NCBI GenBank assembly: GCA_021789755.1
Contig: JAJYJD010000004.1
Location: 1-32,314, forward strand
Reading direction: 5' to 3'
Length of the DNA stretch: 32,314 bases
Source: Bacteroidota bacterium
Lineage (GTDB): Bacteria; Bacteroidota; Ignavibacteria; Kryptoniales; JAKASW01
The notes beneath the pieces are model-generated. The model saw only the letters and a program-made list of their open reading frames with translations. It had not been told where the DNA came from and did no database searches. The position numbers were made by a program, and so were the translations under genes. Positions 3,862 through 19,875 of the stretch are shown one piece after another (within the stretch, counting starts at the first letter, position 1; every line of letters starts with the position of its first letter).

Positions 3862-4809
3862 ATGGAACAGAACCTTGGCAAGCAACTCGTCCTCGACGAG
3901 CTTTTCGATCTCACTCTCTACAAAAAGATACGCGAGATAGTCCCTGATGACCTGACGCCGCTCTTCGACCAGCTTATCCCGACCGAGACGAAACACCTCA
4001 AGTTCTGGCAGGATTTCTTCTCCGTAGACATTAACGAGCTCGATTTCAGGCGGAAGTTGAAACTGACTGTCCTGACGTCCGTCGCCCGAATATTCGGGAA
4101 CCTCGGCACTCACCTGGTCCTCGAAGCAATCGAGGTCTACGGAGTCAGGAAATACATAACGGTCTGGAACAAATACAAAGGGACGCCGACGGGCGAGGCG
4201 GTGCGCAAGATCCTCGAAGACGAATTCCAACACGAAGATGAGATAGTCTCATCGGCAAGCGAAAGGCTCATCCATCCGGAGCGTGTGCGGGATATCTTCC
4301 TGGGGTTGAACGACGGGCTTGTCGAGATACTCGGTGCCGTTTCGGGCTTCTTTGCCGCTCTCTCCAACATACCGGCGGTAATCGCGGCAAGCGCTGCGGT
4401 CGCCGTTGCCGGGTCGATTTCTATGGCGGCGGGCGCTTACGGCGCGATGAACTCCGAAAAGGAAGTCGAACGCGTCGAGGCCGCGAAAAGGGAATTTATC
4501 GAGGGGAAGGTGGCCGATGCAAAGGCCGGCTCTTCGAGCGCCGCCGAATCGGCATCGGTGGTCGGTGTGTCCTATTTCTTCGGTGCGCTTGTGCCCGTCC
4601 TTCCCGTGCTTCTTGGAGCTACAAATATTTTCTGGTCCCTCGGATTTGCCGCAGTCGTCATGGTTTTTATCTCGACCGTGATAGCCTTCCTTTCCGGGAT
4701 GCGGATGCGGAGAAGAATTGTTACCAACCTCGTCACTCTCCTCATCGCTGTCGGAATTACGTACGCCGTCGGGCTCCTGGCAAGGTCGGTATTCGGCATC
4801 AACATTTAA
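3862..4809 (+). CDS. VIT1/CCC1-family transporter with N-terminal ferritin-like domain
   Basis: N-terminal helical domain with TETKHLKFW and LEDEFQHEDEI, then FLGLNDGLVEILGAVSGFFAALSN and AAGAYGAMNSEKEVE, which are typical of VIT1/CCC1, plus C-terminal TM helices. Confidence 0.87.
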   Translation: MEQNLGKQLVLDELFDLTLYKKIREIVPDDLTPLFDQLIPTETKHLKFWQDFFSVDINELDFRRKLKLTVLTSVARIFGNLGTHLVLEAIEVYGVRKYITVWNKYKGTPTGEAVRKILEDEFQHEDEIVSSASERLIHPERVRDIFLGLNDGLVEILGAVSGFFAALSNIPAVIAASAAVAVAGSISMAAGAYGAMNSEKEVERVEAAKREFIEGKVADAKAGSSSAAESASVVGVSYFFGALVPVLPVLLGATNIFWSLGFAAVVMVFISTVIAFLSGMRMRRRIVTNLVTLLIAVGITYAVGLLARSVFGINI

Positions 4810-10575: not shown

Positions 10576-10824
10576 TCAGCGGAACATATCGTTCATCTCG
10601 CCGACGATCTTCATCTGAGCACGCAGTTCTTCCAGCTGCGCAGTAAGCTGCTCCTTGTGTTCCCGCTCCATCTTTGCCAATGAAAGGAAGAATTCACTCA
10701 CCCTCGTGTCGCAAGCCAGCTCGGCGGCGTGCAAATACTTTTCCTCGGACTCGATCTCACTCCCGATAGCTTCCTCGAGAATCGAAATTATTGTCTGCCT
10801 GATTTCGGGTTCACCATTCGCCAT
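10576..10824 (-). CDS. Small ferritin-like / rubrerythrin-type two-helix protein
   Basis: 82 aa: EAIGSEIESEEKYLHAAELACDTRVSEFFLSLAKMEREHKEQLTAQLEEL. Has the E...Y..A and E..H pattern of ferritin-like helices. Starts 10 nt after the upstream 2-oxoacid oxidoreductase gene. Confidence 0.65.
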   Translation of the reverse strand: MANGEPEIRQTIISILEEAIGSEIESEEKYLHAAELACDTRVSEFFLSLAKMEREHKEQLTAQLEELRAQMKIVGEMNDMFR

Positions 10825-10834
10825 AATCGTCTCC

Positions 10835-12181
10835 TTAAATTCCTCCGACGACGTTTTCTATTATCGACAGCAGCTCCTCGGGTTTGTTCTGCATCGCAGC
10901 AACGTCCTGGAACGCCAGCATCGGGAGCATACCTGTAGTTTTTGCAGCCGTAAGTATTCCCGCGAAGGCCGCCCCCGCCGGCAGATATTTCTTTCTGAGC
11001 GGCAGCTTCACGACTTTCCCCGCGCACGCAGGAAGCGTGAGGGTGTCATCCGCAATGACCAGTGTATCTGCATCGGCACTTCTGAATGTCCCTTTTGCCT
11101 CCAACTCCCGCACTCCATCTTCCGACACGACGACCACGATGTCGGGCGTGTCGATACCGGTATAGAAGATTTCGTCCCGCGATATGACGACCTCCGAGAG
11201 TGAGAATCCCGTTCCCTGTGTGACCGGATTGTCGTTCTTCTGAGTGGCGTTGGCGCCCGAGAGTACTGCCGCCTGCATGAGCATATACGACGCGAATTGC
11301 ACGCGCTCTCCAGCCGTTCCGCCTATAACGAAGCCGATCCTTTTCTCGAGCGCATTCTCATAACGGGGCTCAATTTCGGTCACCCTGGCTGCCGGCACAG
11401 GCCCCGAGAACTTTTCTCTGTATGAAACTCCAAACTCTTTTCTGTTCCGCCGGTTCACCAGTACACCGAGTTCGGCAACGGTACCGGGATCTATTTCCGC
11501 GAGCTTGTTTCCGCGAATTACGTTGCCGCGGACGGCATACTCCGTACACAGTTCCAGCACTTCGACAAGCGCAAAACCCGGATGGTTTATCGCTTGCGCA
11601 ATCGTCTCGGCGAGATCGGCATCGGTCGCCGTCTTCCTTGCCAGGAAGCCCGCGTTCGCGCCCTTCAAGATCGCCAGCAAATCGACCGGCGGTATAATGT
11701 TTCCTCCGGGCGTCGTGGCGGTGACGAAGTTGAGCGGCGAAAAACTGGAGTTCTGCCCGCCGGTCATCCCGAAAAGGAAATTGTTGTAGAGGACAACCGT
11801 AACATCGACGTTCATCTGGGCAGCGTTGATGAGATGAAGGAGACCTATCATCGCACCGCCGTCTCCGATCACGACGATATTTTTAAGCTTGGAATCTGCC
11901 AGGATCGAATCGGCTATTTCCACACCTGTCGAGAACGCCGTCGACCTGCCGTGAGTCGTGTGGAGCGAATGTACGCCCTCGAACAACGAATCGATAAGTC
12001 CGACACATCCTATGTCGCTTGTAATATTCACATGCCGCGCTTCCAGATCCAGCCTGACAAGTGCCGTGTTTATAGCGTTCGTAATGTGATGGTGACCGCA
12101 CCCTTTACAGAACGGGAACTTCTCCCCCACCTTTAGATATGTTTTGTTTATCTTCGAGCTTTGTGCCGCGACCTCAGACAT
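10835..12181 (-). CDS. 2-oxoacid:ferredoxin oxidoreductase, TPP-binding beta subunit fused to a C-terminal gamma-type domain
   Basis: Beta: FPFCKGCGHHHITNAINTAL, SDIGCVGLID, VVIGDGGAMIGLLHLINAAQMNVDVTVVLYNN. Gamma-like C-terminus: KRIGFVIGGTAGERVQFASYMLMQAAVLSG...SEVVISRDEIFYTGIDTPDIVVVVSEDG. Confidence 0.85.
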   Translation of the reverse strand: MSEVAAQSSKINKTYLKVGEKFPFCKGCGHHHITNAINTALVRLDLEARHVNITSDIGCVGLIDSLFEGVHSLHTTHGRSTAFSTGVEIADSILADSKLKNIVVIGDGGAMIGLLHLINAAQMNVDVTVVLYNNFLFGMTGGQNSSFSPLNFVTATTPGGNIIPPVDLLAILKGANAGFLARKTATDADLAETIAQAINHPGFALVEVLELCTEYAVRGNVIRGNKLAEIDPGTVAELGVLVNRRNRKEFGVSYREKFSGPVPAARVTEIEPRYENALEKRIGFVIGGTAGERVQFASYMLMQAAVLSGANATQKNDNPVTQGTGFSLSEVVISRDEIFYTGIDTPDIVVVVSEDGVRELEAKGTFRSADADTLVIADDTLTLPACAGKVVKLPLRKKYLPAGAAFAGILTAAKTTGMLPMLAFQDVAAMQNKPEELLSIIENVVGGI

Positions 12182-12191
12182 TGACTATTCC

Positions 12192-13325
12192 TCAGTTCCT
12201 TGATGATATGGCTTTTTCTATTTCGGCGGGCGTTATCATCCTGCCCACTCCGTTCACTCCCGTTATCTCCTTAGAGGGAAACAACCGCGCAATCTGACTC
12301 CGGTACAGACCTGTCATATTCTCCTCGACCACAACGATCCTCTTCGCCTTGCCGGCCGCATCGGTGATCTCGTTTTCCGGAATCGGGAAAAGTGTCTTCA
12401 AGTTACAGAATGCGACACGTTCTCCTTTCATGCGCAAGTTTGCCACCGCTTCTCTCGCAGTGCGTGCACTTATGCCGTAGCTGAATACAATGGTCTCAGG
12501 TTTAGCAGGCGAGTCGATTTCAAGCGTGGTTATTTCGTGTGACCTTGAGGAAACCTTCTCCTGCAGGTGTCTCAAAACCTCGACCGTCTCGGGAGAATTC
12601 TTCTGGAGCCGTCCCGCCATGTCGTGAGCGGAACCGGTGACAGTCACCTTCTCGGTTCCACCGATAGGCGCGAAATCCGGCACGTCGTTTCTTTCCGCAA
12701 GTGAATATGTCCTGAATGTCTCGCCGTCTGTCCTGTTGAACTCTTTTCGTTCCACAGTAATCACAGAAGGAAGAGCGGAATAATCGACATTCTCCGAAGT
12801 CATTGCCACTTCCTTGTCGGTCAAAAGAATCACCGGAGTCCTCAGCCTCTCCGCAACGTTGAAAGCATGTATCGTAAGCTCATAGGCCTCGACAGGAGTT
12901 GAAGGCGAATAGACGGGAATGGCGTAGCCGCCTGCGATTGAGTTGCCGACGAAGAGGACGTCACCCTGACCGCCCTGTGTGGCACCGCCGGTACTCGGGC
13001 CGAGCCGCTGAACAAGGGCGATGACCAGCGGCGTTTCCGTCATGACGGCATACTGGAGAGTCTCGACCATAAGTGAGAAGCCGGGACCCGATGTTGCAGT
13101 CATTGCCTTGAAACCGCGCTGCGATGCGCCCACGCAATACGCCAGAGCCGATATCTCGTCCGGGGAGCTTATCGCGACGTCTCCCCGCTTCGGGAGCTCG
13201 TCGATCATAAACTTGTAAATGCCGGAGGCAGGTGTTATGGGATAGCCGGCGAAGAACCTGCACCCGGCGGCCACCGCCCCCTCACCGATCATCTGGTTTC
13301 CGTTTCTGATTCTAAATAGCGGCAT
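12192..13325 (-). CDS. korA: 2-oxoacid:ferredoxin oxidoreductase alpha subunit (KorA-like)
   Basis: GNQMIGEGAVAAGCRFFAGYPITPASGIYKFM, TATSGPGFSLMVETLQYAVMTETPLVIALVQRLGPSTGGATQGGQGD, VVVEENMTGLYRSQIARLF. The substrate is not determinable from sequence alone. Confidence 0.85.
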   Translation of the reverse strand: MPLFRIRNGNQMIGEGAVAAGCRFFAGYPITPASGIYKFMIDELPKRGDVAISSPDEISALAYCVGASQRGFKAMTATSGPGFSLMVETLQYAVMTETPLVIALVQRLGPSTGGATQGGQGDVLFVGNSIAGGYAIPVYSPSTPVEAYELTIHAFNVAERLRTPVILLTDKEVAMTSENVDYSALPSVITVERKEFNRTDGETFRTYSLAERNDVPDFAPIGGTEKVTVTGSAHDMAGRLQKNSPETVEVLRHLQEKVSSRSHEITTLEIDSPAKPETIVFSYGISARTAREAVANLRMKGERVAFCNLKTLFPIPENEITDAAGKAKRIVVVEENMTGLYRSQIARLFPSKEITGVNGVGRMITPAEIEKAISSRN

Positions 13326-13444: not shown

Positions 13445-14428
13445 CTATTTTTGCCTGCTTCGCACCTTTGTCGCGGCGCGCTTGGTGCGCGATGATTCTT
13501 TTTCCTTCTGCGGCGCGGCTTTCTTCAAGTGCTCCGCGCCCTTCGTAGATGCCAGTCTGACCGACAGTCTTTCCCAATCTTCGTCGACATATTTTTGAAT
13601 CTCTTCGATTTGATCTTCTCGCAGATGCCTGAACCTTCCCTGCATCCTGATATAATCGCGCACAGGGGTTCCTGCGGGCTGCCTCGACAACCTGTAGTCT
13701 ACACCGTCAAAAACCTCGAGAAGCGGGAAGACCCTGCTTTCGATCGCCATGCGCGAAATCTTTATCGAATCCTCCGGCTCAAATTTCCATCCGGGAGGAC
13801 ACGGCGAAAAGACATGTATGAATCGGAAACCGCTGATGTCTTTGGCCCTCTGAATCTTTGCTATCATGTCGTCAGGATAGGCGACGCTGGCAGTCGCAAG
13901 ATACGGTATTCGATGAGCGGCAAGAACTTCCACAATATTCTTCTTCTTCTCGGCCTTCGGCGACTCAGCAGGAGTCGTTGTCGTCCAGGCACCGAAAGGT
14001 GTAGCGGAGCTCCGCTGAATACCGGTGTTCATGTACGCTTCGTTGTCGTAACAAATGTAAATGAAATCTTCATTTCGCTCAGCCGCGCCCGAAAGTGCCT
14101 GGAAGCCTATGTCGAAAGTCCCTCCATCGCCGGCAAATGCAACGACAGTGGTCTCGTGGTCGCCCTGCGCCTCGAGTCCCGCCTTGACCCCGCTCGCCGT
14201 CGAAGCGGCAGTCTCGAAAGCCGTGTGAAACACCGGTACGCCTGCAGCCGAATACGGGACCGGCCCGTCTATGACGGACCAGCAGCACGCCGGAATAACA
14301 ACGATAACTTTCCTACCGAGCGCTTTGAGCATGTATCGCATCGTCAGAGTGCCGCCACAGCCCGGACACGCGAAATGACCGGGTGCAAGAATTTCTTCCG
14401 GAGGCAACTGATACTTTATCTGTCCCAT
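13445..14428 (-). CDS. porB: Pyruvate (2-oxoacid):ferredoxin oxidoreductase beta subunit
   Basis: GHFACPGCGGTLTMRYMLKALG, VIPACCWSVIDG, VVAFAGDGGTFDIGFQALSGAAERNEDFIYICYDNEAYMNTGIQRSSATPFGAWTTTTP. Basic C-terminal tail. Confidence 0.9.
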   Translation of the reverse strand: MGQIKYQLPPEEILAPGHFACPGCGGTLTMRYMLKALGRKVIVVIPACCWSVIDGPVPYSAAGVPVFHTAFETAASTASGVKAGLEAQGDHETTVVAFAGDGGTFDIGFQALSGAAERNEDFIYICYDNEAYMNTGIQRSSATPFGAWTTTTPAESPKAEKKKNIVEVLAAHRIPYLATASVAYPDDMIAKIQRAKDISGFRFIHVFSPCPPGWKFEPEDSIKISRMAIESRVFPLLEVFDGVDYRLSRQPAGTPVRDYIRMQGRFRHLREDQIEEIQKYVDEDWERLSVRLASTKGAEHLKKAAPQKEKESSRTKRAATKVRSRQK

Positions 14429-14431
14429 CGC

Positions 14432-15718
14432 TCACACTCCCTCAGATTTCATTCGTCCACCGGGGCCTTCAGGTATCGGAGGCTCCTCTTGTCCGGCAGA
14501 ATCGCTTTTCAGACTTATCCAGATAGTCTCTCTTTCAGGTTCGTCATGATTCAGTAGATAGGAGAAGATCTCCTTGATGGTCTCCGGTGTAATGTCACGT
14601 CCGCCGAGTCCCGCGATGAATCCGAACAGGCTCGGCCTGACGGGCGCATTATAAAGGACCGCTTTCGTTTCCTGGTAGATGATTCCGGTCGCACCGAACG
14701 AAATGTTCCGATCCATGACGCCGATCTTCTTGACTCTCTGTGCGAGTGCGCGTATCTCGTCGACCGGGAACGGCCTGAAAGCCCTGAGCTTCATCAGGCC
14801 CACCGGGAATCCCATACTTCTCAGCTCATCGACCGCGATGCGGGCCGTACTCACCGCGGTGGCCGATGTCAGCAACACAACCTCGGCATCTTCGGTGAAA
14901 TACTCTTCGACAAGTCCGCCGTATGAACGTCCAAATTTAGCAGAGAACTCCAGGTCGACGTCCCGTATGACTGCCCGCGCGTCTTCCATCGCCTGGAACA
15001 ACTTATACCGCATCTCCATGTATGCATCGGGTCCGATAAGAGCTCCGAAAGCTTTCGGGTCCGCGGTGTCGACCTTGAACAATGCCTTTCGGGCCGGGAG
15101 AAACTCGTCGACAACCTCCTGCTTCGGAATTGCGACCGGCTCGGATGTATGGCTCAAAACGAAAGCATCCAGGTTAATCATGACGGGTAACGAAACCGTC
15201 TCGGCGATCTTATATGCCTGCAGAACCGTATCCATTACTTCCTGATTGCTCTCGGCGTAGAATTGAAGCCAGCCAGTGTCGCGCTGGGAAAGACTGTCGT
15301 TGTGGTCGACGTATATCGACCACGGCGGCGCCATCGCGCGGTTGACGTTGACCATGACAATGGGAAGCCTGCTTCCCGCCGCCCAGTGCAGAAGCTCGTG
15401 CATCAGCGCGAGTCCCTGAGAAGATGTGGCGGTGAACGCCCTCGCTCCACTTATGGATGAACCGATGCAGCAAGCCATGGCCGAATGTTCCGATTCGACC
15501 TTTATAAATTTCGCCTGGAGCTCGCCGCCGCTTACGATTTCTGACAACTTCTCGACCACGCTGGTCTGAGGAGTTATCGGGTAGGCTGCAATTACCTGTA
15601 CGCGCGCGAGTTTCACGGCGTAAGACGCAGCGTGAGTCCCCTCTATTACAAGAACTCTGTCGACGGACGGGTGGAGGAGACCTCCGTTTCCATTGCTCTT
15701 ACTCATCCTGTTGATCAT
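14432..15718 (-). CDS. porA: Pyruvate (2-oxoacid):ferredoxin oxidoreductase alpha subunit
   Basis: AYPITPQTSVVEKLSEIV, FIKVESEHSAMACCIGSSISGARAFTATSSQGLALMHELLHWAAGSRLPIVMVNVNRAMAPPWSIYVDHNDSLSQRDTGWLQFYAES. ATG at 15718 overlaps the upstream TGA (ATGA), so it is preferred over the track start at 15808. Confidence 0.9.
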   Translation of the reverse strand: MINRMSKSNGNGGLLHPSVDRVLVIEGTHAASYAVKLARVQVIAAYPITPQTSVVEKLSEIVSGGELQAKFIKVESEHSAMACCIGSSISGARAFTATSSQGLALMHELLHWAAGSRLPIVMVNVNRAMAPPWSIYVDHNDSLSQRDTGWLQFYAESNQEVMDTVLQAYKIAETVSLPVMINLDAFVLSHTSEPVAIPKQEVVDEFLPARKALFKVDTADPKAFGALIGPDAYMEMRYKLFQAMEDARAVIRDVDLEFSAKFGRSYGGLVEEYFTEDAEVVLLTSATAVSTARIAVDELRSMGFPVGLMKLRAFRPFPVDEIRALAQRVKKIGVMDRNISFGATGIIYQETKAVLYNAPVRPSLFGFIAGLGGRDITPETIKEIFSYLLNHDEPERETIWISLKSDSAGQEEPPIPEGPGGRMKSEGV

Positions 15719-17418
15719 GCCTGTACAGCCTCCTCTTCCACTTCGTGAGCGCCTTCGGGGACGAGCTCCATGGCTTCTCGCGGACATTCGTTCACGCAAA
15801 TTCCACACCCTTTGCAGTGATCGTAATCGATCACGTACTCTCCGTCTTTATCCTTGCTTATCGCCACGTCAGGACAGAACGTCAAACAGACATCGCAGTG
15901 GAGACATGTTCCACATGTAAAGCATCTTTCTGCTTCATCGAGCGCCTGTCCTTCAGTCAGCGTTCTGTTGACTTCAGTGAAACTCGCCTTGCTCTTTTCA
16001 ACGGCAATCCGCGGGACTTTCACTCTCTTTTCGTGTGGAAAATAAAAAGTGTTGACATCATCCGGATGGACGACATCATGCGATAGCCCGTTCGACTGGG
16101 TGCGCCAGCCGAGGAACTCGTCTATGGATTTTGCCGCGTCTTTCCCTGCGCGGATCGCATTAACGACGGTGCCGTTCGGATTCGTCGCGGCGTCTCCGCC
16201 GGCGAATATTCCCGGAACTCCGGTAGAATAATCGTCATCGACGAAGAGTCTCACGCCTTTCTTGAGGAATGAGTACGGCAGGAATGAAAGATCGGGCTCC
16301 TCGCCGATCGCGGATATGATGGTGTCCGCCGCCATTGTGTAGTTGGAGCCTTTAACGGGAACAGGTCTTCTCCTTCCGCTGGCATCGGGCTCCCCGAGTT
16401 TCATCTTTATAAGCTCTATCTTCGAAGCCTTACCCTTGACACCAGTAATTTTCGCCGGAGCAACGAGAAACTCAAAACGGACGCCTTCTTTTTCAGCCTC
16501 TTCAATTTCCTCCGGTACCGCAGGCATTTCGGCCCGTGTTCGTCGGTATAGTATGGTCGCCTTCTTGCCGAGCCTGACTGCGCTCCTGGCTGCATCGATT
16601 GCCGTGTTTCCGCCACCAACGACGAGAACTTGCCGCCCGACCTTCGGAACGATGCCGGTGCTCAGGTCCCGCAGGAAATCGACACCGGTATAGACGCCCT
16701 TCAGACCTTCTCCCGCGACGTCCATCTTCCTGCTCCGCATGGCGCCCACGGCGACAAAAACGGCATCGAATTTCTCGAGCTCACTCCATGCTACATTTCC
16801 CCCGATCCTGGAATCCATCCGGATCTCGACACCTAAACTTTCAATATCGGCGATCTCTTTGTCCAGAATTTTTTTCGGAAGCCTGTACTCCGGTATGCCG
16901 TACCTCAGCATTCCTCCGGGCTCGTGGTCGGCTTCAAATATGACCGTTCGATAACCTTTCCTGGACAGCTGGTACGCGCAGGAAAGTCCCGCCGGTCCGG
17001 AGCCTATCACGGCAACCTTCTCGCTCTTAGGCGTCTCGGAGACTTGAGGGAGTTTCTTGTTACGTAGATTCTTGTCCGCCACAAACCGCTCTATGTTATG
17101 TATTGCGACAGCCTCATCGTACGGTTTCCTGTTGCACTGTCCTTCACACGGGTGATAACAGACCCTTCCCGTAACTCCGGGGAGCGGGTTATCTTCCAGA
17201 ATCTTGTACCAAGCCTCTTCGTATTTCTTCTGCCTGACAAGATCGAAATAAACGGGGATCTTCTCCCCGGCAGGACATCCGACCTCGCAGGGAGAAGTCT
17301 TGTTCTTGTAGACGGGTCTCACATGCCGCCAGCTTCCGGTAGGAATTTTTCTCGTCGACTCGAGCGAGAATGCCAGCGGCGGCATCTCTTCGACAGTTGT
17401 GTATTTATATCTTGTCAT
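15715..17418 (-). CDS. GltD-like FAD/NAD(P)-binding oxidoreductase with C-terminal 2[4Fe-4S] ferredoxin domain (PorD/PadH-like)
   Basis: N-terminal CEVGCPAGEKIP...GRVCYHPCEGQCNR; VIGSGPAGLSCAYQLSRKGYRTVIFEADHEPGGMLRYGIPEYRLPK; VVGGGNTAIDAARSAVRLG; C-terminal CFTCGTCLHCDVCLTFCPDVAI...CKGCGICVNECPREAM. Confidence 0.9.
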   Translation of the reverse strand: MTRYKYTTVEEMPPLAFSLESTRKIPTGSWRHVRPVYKNKTSPCEVGCPAGEKIPVYFDLVRQKKYEEAWYKILEDNPLPGVTGRVCYHPCEGQCNRKPYDEAVAIHNIERFVADKNLRNKKLPQVSETPKSEKVAVIGSGPAGLSCAYQLSRKGYRTVIFEADHEPGGMLRYGIPEYRLPKKILDKEIADIESLGVEIRMDSRIGGNVAWSELEKFDAVFVAVGAMRSRKMDVAGEGLKGVYTGVDFLRDLSTGIVPKVGRQVLVVGGGNTAIDAARSAVRLGKKATILYRRTRAEMPAVPEEIEEAEKEGVRFEFLVAPAKITGVKGKASKIELIKMKLGEPDASGRRRPVPVKGSNYTMAADTIISAIGEEPDLSFLPYSFLKKGVRLFVDDDYSTGVPGIFAGGDAATNPNGTVVNAIRAGKDAAKSIDEFLGWRTQSNGLSHDVVHPDDVNTFYFPHEKRVKVPRIAVEKSKASFTEVNRTLTEGQALDEAERCFTCGTCLHCDVCLTFCPDVAISKDKDGEYVIDYDHCKGCGICVNECPREAMELVPEGAHEVEEEAVQA

Positions 17419-17429
17419 GTCAGCCGCCC

Positions 17430-18044
17430 TTACTTTACGGTTATATTTTCATTTCCTTCCGAAGAGAGATGCTCGCGCACGATCGTCTCCGTCATGACTG
17501 AATCCACAGATTCATACGCCTCGAGCGCCGCAGCGGCGTTCTCATCCTGCTTCATTGGAACGCCCTCCCTTATCGCTTCCACTATCGCATCTATCCCGAC
17601 CACTCCTGAAAATTTCGCAAAGGCCCCGAGGATCGACGTGTTCACGATCGGCATGCTCTTCGTCCCGAGCCCGTGCTTAACCGCAATACCTGCTGCGTCG
17701 ACGGAGCCGACGGAATAGTCCCCCGGGAATGTGAAGGTACTCAGCGGATTCGATGTGTTCACGAGAATCGTACCTCCTCGTTTCAAACCGGAGAAAACGT
17801 TCGTGAATTTAATCAGTGTCGCATCGAGAATAATCAGGTGGTCAGGTTCGTAAATGGCCGTCCGAAGCCTGATGGGTTTATCGTCCACTCTTGTGAATGC
17901 GAGCACCGGGGCTCCTCTTCTTTCGACACCGAACGATGGAAAGGATTGAGCGAACTTACCTTCCTTGAAGATAGCGGAAGCGAGAATCTTCGCGGCAATC
18001 ACTCCACCCTGACCGCCTCTTCCGTGCATCCTGATTTCAATCAT
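17430..18044 (-). CDS. porG: 2-oxoacid:ferredoxin oxidoreductase gamma subunit
   Basis: MIEIRMHGRGGQGGVIAAKILASAIFKEGKFAQSFPSFGVERRGAPVLAFTRVDDKPIRLRTAIYEPDHLIILD is a PorG signature. Confidence 0.9.
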   Translation of the reverse strand: MIEIRMHGRGGQGGVIAAKILASAIFKEGKFAQSFPSFGVERRGAPVLAFTRVDDKPIRLRTAIYEPDHLIILDATLIKFTNVFSGLKRGGTILVNTSNPLSTFTFPGDYSVGSVDAAGIAVKHGLGTKSMPIVNTSILGAFAKFSGVVGIDAIVEAIREGVPMKQDENAAAALEAYESVDSVMTETIVREHLSSEGNENITVK

Positions 18045-18465: not shown

Positions 18466-19875
18466 ATGACCTATTTAGTCGACACACATTCACATTTGAA
18501 TCACGAAAAGTTTCAGGATGTCCGCGCAACTTTGGAACAAGCGGCGTCGGTCGGAGTCGAGTATATCATCGTTCCGGGTTGGGATCTGGAGTCAAGCGAG
18601 AGAGCCGTCGAGCTGGCAGAGAAGTTCAAGAACGTGTTTGCAGCCGTTGGATATCACCCGCACGATGCGGCTAAGGCCGACGACACATCTCTAAAGAAGA
18701 TAGCCGATATGTCTTCTCATGAGAAAGTTGTCGCCATCGGCGAGATCGGCCTCGACTACCATTACAATCTCTCTCCTCCGGAGATTCAGAGGAAAGTGTT
18801 CGAGGCGCAAATCGAAATTGCCAGGTCCGTGAAACTCCCGGTCTCCATTCACAACCGCGAATCCGACCAGGACTTGATCACCATCCTTGACAAACACATT
18901 CAAACCGGCTGGGTTCTTCCGCGCAGGTTCGACTACCAGATAAGACTCCAGCCGAGGGGCGTCCTTCACAGCTTCATTTCTACTTTAGAGATCGCACGCC
19001 GCGCCACCAAACTCGGATTCTACCTCGGAATAAGCGGCATGGTGACATTCGGCAAGTCGGACAGGACAGAACTTCAGAAAGTGGTCGCGACATTCGAGCC
19101 GGAATATTTTCTCGTGGAGACCGACGCCCCGTACCTCGCGCCGGCTCCCTGCCGCGGGAAGACAAACGAACCCGCATTCGTACCGTACATCGTCGACAGG
19201 ATCGCAGTATTGCAGGAGCTGACGGTCGAGGATATCCGGCGCATCACTTCATACAATGCATACAAGCTGTTCGGCATCGGAGCGAAACCCGCGGCTAAGA
19301 TTGCGTATCAAATCCGCAACTCGCTCTATCTCAACCTCACTCTGCGATGCGACGCAGATTGTATCTTCTGCGATCGCAAAGGCGAGGCAATGGTCAAGGG
19401 GCACAATCTCCACATAGAAAAAGAGCCCTCGGCGCAGGAGCTGATGAATGAAATCGGCGATCCGAAAAGGTTCAAGGAAATTGTCTTCTGCGGATACGGA
19501 GAGCCGACGATCAGGATTGACGTTATCAAGGAAGTAGCACGTTATGTCAAAGACAATGGAGGCATGACTCGCCTCGATACGGACGGACACGGCAATGTCA
19601 TAAACCACCGCGACATACTGCCTGAAGTAAATGGCCTGATCGACGCCGTTTCAATCAGCCTCAACTCGACCGACCCTGAGGAATATGGCAAGCTGATGGG
19701 AACACCCAGCGGCAAACAATGGGATTCCATGTTTGAATTCGCAAAAGAGGCAAAAGATTTCATCCCGAAAGTTTACATGAGTGTTGTCGGAGTGGATGGG
19801 CTCGACATAGAGTCTGCGAAGGAATTCGTGGAAAAGAAAATGGGCGTAGAGTTCAGGTTGAGGCCGCTGTTCTGA
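18466..19875 (+). CDS. TatD-family metal-dependent hydrolase fused to TatD-associated radical SAM domain
   Basis: TatD: LVDTHSHLNHEKF, AAVGYHPHDA, AIGEIGLDYHYN, VLHSF, LVETDAPYLAPAPCRGKTNEPAFV. Radical SAM: NLTLRCDADCIFCDRKG (CX3CX2C) and FCGYGEPTIR. One uninterrupted ORF. Confidence 0.9.
   Translation: MTYLVDTHSHLNHEKFQDVRATLEQAASVGVEYIIVPGWDLESSERAVELAEKFKNVFAAVGYHPHDAAKADDTSLKKIADMSSHEKVVAIGEIGLDYHYNLSPPEIQRKVFEAQIEIARSVKLPVSIHNRESDQDLITILDKHIQTGWVLPRRFDYQIRLQPRGVLHSFISTLEIARRATKLGFYLGISGMVTFGKSDRTELQKVVATFEPEYFLVETDAPYLAPAPCRGKTNEPAFVPYIVDRIAVLQELTVEDIRRITSYNAYKLFGIGAKPAAKIAYQIRNSLYLNLTLRCDADCIFCDRKGEAMVKGHNLHIEKEPSAQELMNEIGDPKRFKEIVFCGYGEPTIRIDVIKEVARYVKDNGGMTRLDTDGHGNVINHRDILPEVNGLIDAVSISLNSTDPEEYGKLMGTPSGKQWDSMFEFAKEAKDFIPKVYMSVVGVDGLDIESAKEFVEKKMGVEFRLRPLF

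What the first reader, a model, noticed from the sequence alone, without database searches (positions are those of the whole stretch)
10576..10824. Half-size ferritin-like protein in a 2-oxoacid oxidoreductase operon
An 82-aa two-helix protein with ferritin-type E...Y..A / E..H spacing begins 10 nt after the fused beta-gamma subunit gene. Half-ferritins (e.g. encapsulated ferritin-like proteins) must dimerise to build a di-iron site. Coupling one to oxygen-sensitive Fe-S enzymes suggests iron supply, O2/peroxide scavenging, or Fe-S protection.
Basis: partly seen in the sequence, partly recalled or inferred. Interest (0 to 1): 0.6.

Follow-up and report, generated by a model that had tools for sequence, protein, structure and literature searches.

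The report
Half-ferritin partner of 2-oxoacid oxidoreductases
A tiny two-helix iron-binding-type protein is encoded right behind an oxygen-sensitive enzyme of central carbon metabolism, and across a whole bacterial class related small proteins sit in the same place, so it is probably an unrecognised helper or subunit of that enzyme.

Summary
Window 10576-10824 (minus strand) encodes an 82-aa helical hairpin, 10 nt after a fused beta-gamma 2-oxoacid:ferredoxin oxidoreductase gene. It is a real gene under strong purifying selection. It is a half-ferritin: E23, Y30, E53 and H56 have exactly the spacing of the published EncFtn ferroxidase-site ligands (E32, Y39, E62, H65), and they are invariant in a diverse set. 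No encapsulin gene was found in 63 genomes searched, so it is not an encapsulin cargo.

Linkage is far beyond chance. In the genus, 12 genomes have this enzyme and 12 have the gene (11 adjacent, one at contig ends); the one genome without the enzyme lacks it. Across the class, half-ferritin genes sit just downstream of a second, only ~27% identical KorABG set in about ten families. These include an undescribed sister type with four invariant cysteines (CX3CX3C plus a loop Cys) instead of ExxH. Of 50 such genes in genomes with a located KorG, 49 directly follow it. Other families lack it entirely.

Most likely it is a dedicated accessory subunit of Kor that guards or services its Fe-S cluster. 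The linkage and site spacing are shown; binding, dimerisation and chemistry are inferred. An apparent Kor-ferritin fusion proved a scaffold-gap artefact.

The parts
10576..10824 (-). Half-ferritin gene (82 aa, two-helix hairpin), last gene of the operon
   Evidence: homologues; selection
10756..10758 (-). Codon of E23, predicted iron ligand (equivalent to EncFtn E32)
10735..10737 (-). Codon of Y30 (E23+7; EncFtn E32/Y39 have the same spacing)
10666..10668 (-). Codon of E53, predicted iron ligand (E23+30; EncFtn E62)
10657..10659 (-). Codon of H56, predicted iron ligand (E23+33; EncFtn H65)
10825..10834 (-). 10-nt gap between KorBG stop and half-ferritin start, holds most of a Shine-Dalgarno AAGGAG that overlaps the stop codon
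10835..12181 (-). Fused beta-gamma subunit (KorBG, 448 aa); C25, C28, C59, C212 fit the beta-subunit [4Fe-4S] ligands, TPP motif GDG intact
12192..13325 (-). Alpha subunit of the second enzyme (KorA type)
13445..14428 (-). Beta subunit of the first enzyme (PorB/PadI type)
14432..15718 (-). Alpha subunit of the first enzyme (PorA type; ATG start at 15718 inferred from 428-aa relatives)
15715..17418 (-). GltD-like NAD(P)H flavoprotein with C-terminal PorD-type two-cluster ferredoxin domain
17430..18044 (-). Gamma subunit of the first enzyme (PorG/PorC type)

Best explanation
The gene encodes a dedicated small partner (probably a subunit) of the KorA-KorBG 2-oxoacid:ferredoxin oxidoreductase. Two hairpins pair antiparallel into one four-helix bundle and build a di-iron site from E23, Y30, E53 and H56 of each chain. 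Sitting on or next to the enzyme, the di-iron centre removes O2/peroxide or captures released Fe2+ where the oxygen-labile [4Fe-4S] cluster of KorB lies, with electrons from the operon's own ferredoxin/flavoprotein. In sister families the same slot holds a four-cysteine variant that would do the equivalent job with another metal site. Shown: gene, fold class, ligand spacing and conservation, operon linkage, absence of encapsulin. Inferred: dimerisation, iron binding, physical contact with Kor, and the protective chemistry.
For: Ligand spacing identical to EncFtn (E, +7 Y, +30 E, +33 H) and invariant. Invariant residues point to one face of each helix (100-140 and 200-280 degrees at 100 degrees per residue), as expected if that face is buried in a dimer. 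The profile matches both halves of full-length ferritin-like proteins (2fzf, 1vjx), EncFtn 5n5e (E 2e-7), EncB, and the de novo helical hairpin 1mft; Foldseek top hits are EncB and EncFtn (probability 1.00, rmsd 1.0 over 55 columns for the best). Linkage: genus 12/12, with joint absence in G006; f3 10/11, f9 1/1, f57 1/1; Cys-type 49/50. The linkage recurs with distant subunit sets (KorABG about 27% identical to the window's subunits). KorBG keeps the four cluster cysteines. 79 of 80 genomes tested encode haem-copper oxidase, so Kor works in O2-using cells. Precedent: a rubrerythrin-like peroxidase fed by ferredoxin:NADPH reductase protects H. thermophilus.
Against: Kor-linked relatives without the di-iron ligands (Cys-type; f17 E53K; f6 degenerate) keep the same slot, so the shared function may not be di-iron chemistry. 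Families f10, f21, f7, f14, f18 and f12 have KorG and nearly always haem-copper oxidase but no half-ferritin, so it is not required. In the sister family f2 the gene sits in a multihaem-cytochrome operon instead. No physical or enzymatic data exist.
Confidence: 0.5

Rival explanations
1. Iron chaperone or cluster-repair protein: the dimer stores or hands over Fe2+ to build or repair the Kor [4Fe-4S] cluster and has no scavenging role.
For: Same anatomy; last position in the operon; half-ferritins such as EncFtn are ferroxidases. A paralogue sits in a leu/ilv operon that also encodes another [4Fe-4S] enzyme, LeuCD.
Against: The leu-operon paralogues have E53 replaced by K or R, and the Cys-type lacks the iron site, so iron transfer from this site cannot be their common role.
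Confidence: 0.22
2. Structural, assembly or regulatory subunit of Kor in which the helix bundle itself matters; metal (di-iron, or a four-Cys Fe-S or Zn site) only staples the dimer.
For: Linkage survives replacement of the metal ligands: Cys-type, f17 type and f6 type. In EncFtn the metal site controls oligomerisation. A paralogue clusters with LeuA-like synthases, which are not themselves Fe-S enzymes.
Against: Near-absolute conservation of either the di-iron ligands or the four cysteines within each type suggests the metal does more than can be lost easily.
Confidence: 0.2
3. General ferritin-like stress protein that merely travels with the operon (co-regulation or linkage hitch-hiking).
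For: Ferritin-like proteins are common; in f2 the gene lies elsewhere.
Against: Position conserved across about ten families, at two different Kor enzymes and in two subtypes, with joint absence in G006.
Confidence: 0.06
4. Encapsulin cargo (EncFtn/EncB-like iron store).
For: Closest folds and sequences are EncB and EncFtn.
Against: No Linocin_M18 encapsulin in 63 genomes, with positive controls found; the protein ends MKIVGEMNDMFR, within helix 2 of the model, with no extension that could serve as a targeting peptide.
Confidence: 0.02

Closest known systems
Encapsulated ferritin EncFtn (R. rubrum Rru_A0973; P. furiosus 5n5e; H. ochraceum 5n5f)
   Same: Two-helix half-ferritin; ligand spacing E, +7 Y, +30 E, +33 H identical; profile match E 2e-7 to 5n5e.
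   Different: No encapsulin gene and no evident targeting tail; lies in a Kor operon; Pfam EncFtn-like PF22277 does not match the window protein.
EncB, M. xanthus encapsulin ferritin-like cargo (7s5c, 7s5k)
   Same: Best Foldseek matches: rmsd 1.0 over 55 columns, probability 1.00; hairpin half-ferritin.
   Different: Cargo of an encapsulin; about 24% identity; NCBIfam EncB far below cut-off (13.9 of 210 bits).
Rubrerythrin / erythrin superfamily (PF02915)
   Same: Over the Pfam cut-off; ExxH di-iron motif.
   Different: Only half the domain; no rubredoxin domain; needs a partner chain for the site.
Ferriperoxin of Hydrogenobacter thermophilus
   Same: Rubredoxin-less rubrerythrin-like protein in an aerobic organism that uses 2-oxoacid:ferredoxin oxidoreductases.
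   Different: Full-length rubrerythrin-like protein, not a half; whether it lies near a Kor operon was not looked at.
De novo di-iron hairpin dimers (DF series, 1mft)
   Same: Short helical hairpins that match this profile; from general knowledge they dimerise around two metals.
   Different: Designed proteins; show feasibility only.
Epsilon/delta subunits of five-subunit OGOR/PFOR (Aquificaceae)
   Same: Extra small subunits of 2-oxoacid oxidoreductases in organisms that use oxygen.
   Different: Epsilon is a two-cluster ferredoxin and delta resembles a CODH/ACS subunit; neither is ferritin-like.

Membership tests
Encapsulated ferritin (EncFtn) | Two-helix protein with E...Y and ExxH ligands at EncFtn spacing | tested here: met
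   E23/Y30/E53/H56 against E32/Y39/E62/H65
Encapsulated ferritin (EncFtn) | Encapsulin shell gene in the genome | tested here: not met
   PF04454: 0 of 63 genomes, controls positive
Encapsulated ferritin (EncFtn) | Match to EncFtn family models (PF22277, TIGR04535) by the window protein | tested here: not met
   Neither listed at E up to 1
Encapsulated ferritin (EncFtn) | Decamer with inter-subunit ferroxidase centre | not testable with these tools
   Only monomer prediction was available
Rubrerythrin | Pfam PF02915 over gathering score | tested here: met
   26.8 bits against 22.8
Rubrerythrin | Complete four-helix domain with both halves of the di-iron site in one chain | tested here: not met
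   Only profile positions 2-61 of 137 matched; two helices
Half-ferritin (ferritin-like superfamily) in general | Hairpin homologous to each half of full-length ferritin-like proteins | tested here: met
   2fzf and 1vjx matched twice; Foldseek ferritin-like hits
Subunit of 2-oxoacid:ferredoxin oxidoreductase | Conserved gene linkage and joint presence/absence | tested here: met
Subunit of 2-oxoacid:ferredoxin oxidoreductase | Fusion to a Kor subunit in some genome (supportive, not required) | tested here: not met
   The single candidate (L174) runs through 24 N of a scaffold gap
Subunit of 2-oxoacid:ferredoxin oxidoreductase | Physical complex | not testable with these tools
   Needs co-purification

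The most novel reading that the evidence does not exclude
Half-ferritins are an unrecognised lineage-wide subunit of 2-oxoacid:ferredoxin oxidoreductases that lets these oxygen-labile enzymes work in respiring cells. They come in two interchangeable metal chemistries: an inter-chain di-iron site, and a four-cysteine site in which three N-terminal cysteines of one chain may meet the loop cysteine of the other at each end of the bundle. In family f13 both forms are encoded in tandem and may pair as a heterodimer.
Probability: 0.3. Interest if true: 0.82.

Novelty: new variant of a known kind. Interest (0 to 1): 0.6.

Why it matters
How oxygen-sensitive 2-oxoacid:ferredoxin oxidoreductases work in microaerobic and aerobic bacteria is an open question, and extra small subunits are a known puzzle. 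A small protein that nearly always follows Kor in many bacterial families, and carries either a di-iron or a four-cysteine site, is a concrete, easily expressed candidate for that protection. It also shows a half-ferritin lineage that is independent of encapsulins.

Tried and rejected
1) Kor-ferritin fusion in G516 (L174, 542-aa frame): rejected; the frame passes through 24 N, and the KorBG stop and the half-ferritin ATG are visible in the correct frames. 2) Identity with the epsilon subunit (ForE/PorE) of five-subunit OGOR: rejected; epsilon is a ferredoxin. 3) Encapsulin cargo: no shell gene in 63 genomes. 4) Half-ferritin marking O2-users against anaerobes: not supported; 79 of 80 genomes, with and without it, have haem-copper oxidase. 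5) Two-repeat 147-171 aa ferritin-like proteins as fused versions in the same slot: mostly not Kor-linked. 6) Plasmid homologues: none. 7) Literature on Kor-linked half-ferritins: nothing in the open library, which misses most subscription papers. 9) One alignment call failed on coordinates, one search exceeded the handle limit and one paper search used a disallowed character; all were redone another way. Not reached: other phyla, because genome searches are centred on the window's lineage and the one genome-contig scan found only close relatives. A structure of the Cys-type was not predicted, because its loci came from a tool outside the list that the structure predictor accepts.

Full report
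THE GENE. Window 10576-10824, minus strand, is an ATG-started ORF of 82 aa. It begins 10 nt after the stop of the fused beta-gamma gene, with an AAGGAG ribosome-binding site spanning the stop. It is a real gene: pairwise omega in the genus is 0.02-0.12 where synonymous change is not saturated, and differences fall mainly at third codon positions (5/4/36 against G010). Pfam PF02915 scores above its cut-off but only over the first half of the profile. No NCBIfam family reaches its cut-off.

THE OPERON. From upstream to downstream: PorG (17430-18044), a GltD-like flavoprotein with a PorD-like ferredoxin domain (15715-17418), PorA (14432-15718), PorB (13445-14428), then a second enzyme, KorA (12192-13325) and KorBG (10835-12181), then the half-ferritin. 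KorBG keeps C25, C28, C59, C212 and the GDG motif, so it very probably carries thiamine diphosphate and a [4Fe-4S] cluster (established for this enzyme family; inferred here).

FOLD AND SITE. AlphaFold2 gives a hairpin with helices 4-36 and 40-81, mean pLDDT 79 from a 7-sequence alignment. Foldseek's best PDB matches are EncB and EncFtn half-ferritins (probability 1.00; rmsd 1.0 over 55 columns for the first), then full-length ferritin-like proteins; no E-value passes 0.001, as expected for so short a hairpin. A sequence profile of 18 homologues finds 2fzf (E 8e-11) and 1vjx (4e-8), each matched twice, once per half, and EncFtn 5n5e (2e-7). Invariant positions are A19, E23, Y30, M52, E53, H56, L60, L64. 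The published EncFtn ferroxidase centre uses E32, Y39, E62 and H65 of two chains (PMC5012862): exactly the same spacing. The invariant residues lie on one face of each helix. A di-iron site in a dimer is therefore feasible; it was not modelled.

NOT AN ENCAPSULIN CARGO. No encapsulin (PF04454) is found in 63 genomes including the window's own, while control genomes are found.

LINKAGE IN THE GENUS. Twelve of 13 genomes have this KorBG (67% identity or more) and the same 12 have the half-ferritin; 11 are adjacent, and in G005 the two genes lie at the ends of different contigs. G006 lacks both. Named members of the group in a public collection are called Bacteroidetes or Candidatus Kryptoniota bacteria.

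LINKAGE ACROSS THE CLASS. With the metal-type profile, half-ferritins follow another KorABG set (about 27% identical to the window's subunits) in f3 (10 of 11 KorG sites, with DUF1573-family genes between), f9, f57, f6 and f13. In f17 they follow a KorA-KorBG pair 50-60% identical to the window's.

A SISTER TYPE WITH FOUR CYSTEINES. In f13 two half-ferritin genes stand in tandem after KorG. The second has the di-iron ligands; the first lacks ExxH and starts with CX3CX3C. The same Cys-type stands after KorG in f4, f17, f19, f20, f58 and f63. Across 39 sequences the three cysteines, a fourth in the hairpin loop, and the residue equivalent to E23 are invariant (one first Cys is lost to start-codon choice). 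Profile comparison with the metal type gives probability 99.3, and the Cys-type forms a supported clade (99/92; short proteins, so the tree is poorly resolved elsewhere). In genomes whose KorG was located, 49 of 50 Cys-type genes lie directly downstream of it, with family median gaps of 25-78 nt; the exception is at a contig end. By my estimate the chance of such a position per gene is of order 1e-4. No Pfam family reaches its cut-off for the Cys-type members tested. A two-chain four-cysteine site is inference from antiparallel bundle geometry.

LIMITS OF THE LINKAGE. Families f10 (0 of 39), f21, f7, f14, f18 and f12 have KorG but no half-ferritin, so the partner is optional. In the sister family f2 it lies in a multihaem cytochrome c / b561 operon. 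A paralogue in the window's own genome and in f4 sits in the leu/ilv operon near two LeuA-like synthase genes and has E53 replaced by K or R.

HOW IT MOST LIKELY WORKS. The recurrence with different Kor enzymes argues for a partner specific to these enzymes. The metal-type's strict ligands argue for iron chemistry; the Cys-type argues that the metal chemistry can be exchanged. I commit to a Kor-attached dimeric di-iron guard (O2/peroxide removal or iron capture), confidence 0.5, ahead of iron chaperone (0.22) and scaffold (0.2). The operon's flavoprotein-ferredoxin is a plausible electron source; a rubrerythrin-like peroxidase driven by ferredoxin:NADPH reductase is known from Hydrogenobacter (PMC3317640). 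Haem-copper oxidases in 79 of 80 genomes fit a need for protection but do not separate genomes with and without the gene.

WHAT IS KNOWN. No paper on Kor-linked half-ferritins was found in the open library. The ForE/PorE epsilon subunits are ferredoxins (PMC10052474). Whether the association exists outside this class could not be tested, so the novelty claim is limited to the absence of a named family and of open-access literature.

Noticed in passing
L135-L146 and others (f13), e.g. L056:6357-6871: Tandem Cys-type and di-iron-type half-ferritin genes directly after KorG: possible heterodimer.
   Followed up: partly
G000 contig C83 (L053:3909-4139); L153, L156 in family f4: Second conserved half-ferritin lineage inside leu/ilv operons, near two LeuA-like synthase genes, with E53 replaced by K or R.
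   Followed up: partly
L048-L050 (family f2): Half-ferritin with intact ligands inside a multihaem cytochrome c / cytochrome b561 operon.
   Followed up: partly
L176, L178 (family f18): Full-length ferritin-like genes lie close to genes resembling PFOR alpha and beta parts (about 26-31% identity): the ferritin/2-oxoacid oxidoreductase association may be wider.
   Followed up: no
window 3862-4809 (+): VIT1-family transporter whose N-terminal part shows ferritin-like E/Y and ExxH motifs by eye (MbfA-like arrangement), about 6 kb from the half-ferritin.
   Followed up: no
window 18466-19875 (+): TatD nuclease fused to a TatD-linked radical SAM domain (TIGR04038 over cut-off), divergently oriented next to the operon and conserved there in the genus.
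   Followed up: no
L052:5450-7114 and equivalents (families f3, f57): Two DUF1573/HYDIN-like genes, apparently exported, lie between KorG and the half-ferritin.
   Followed up: no
L040:3370-3756, L042:4728-5105, L043:3940-4317: In several genus members a 125-128 aa ORF (unannotated here) interrupts the operon between PorB and KorA.
   Followed up: no
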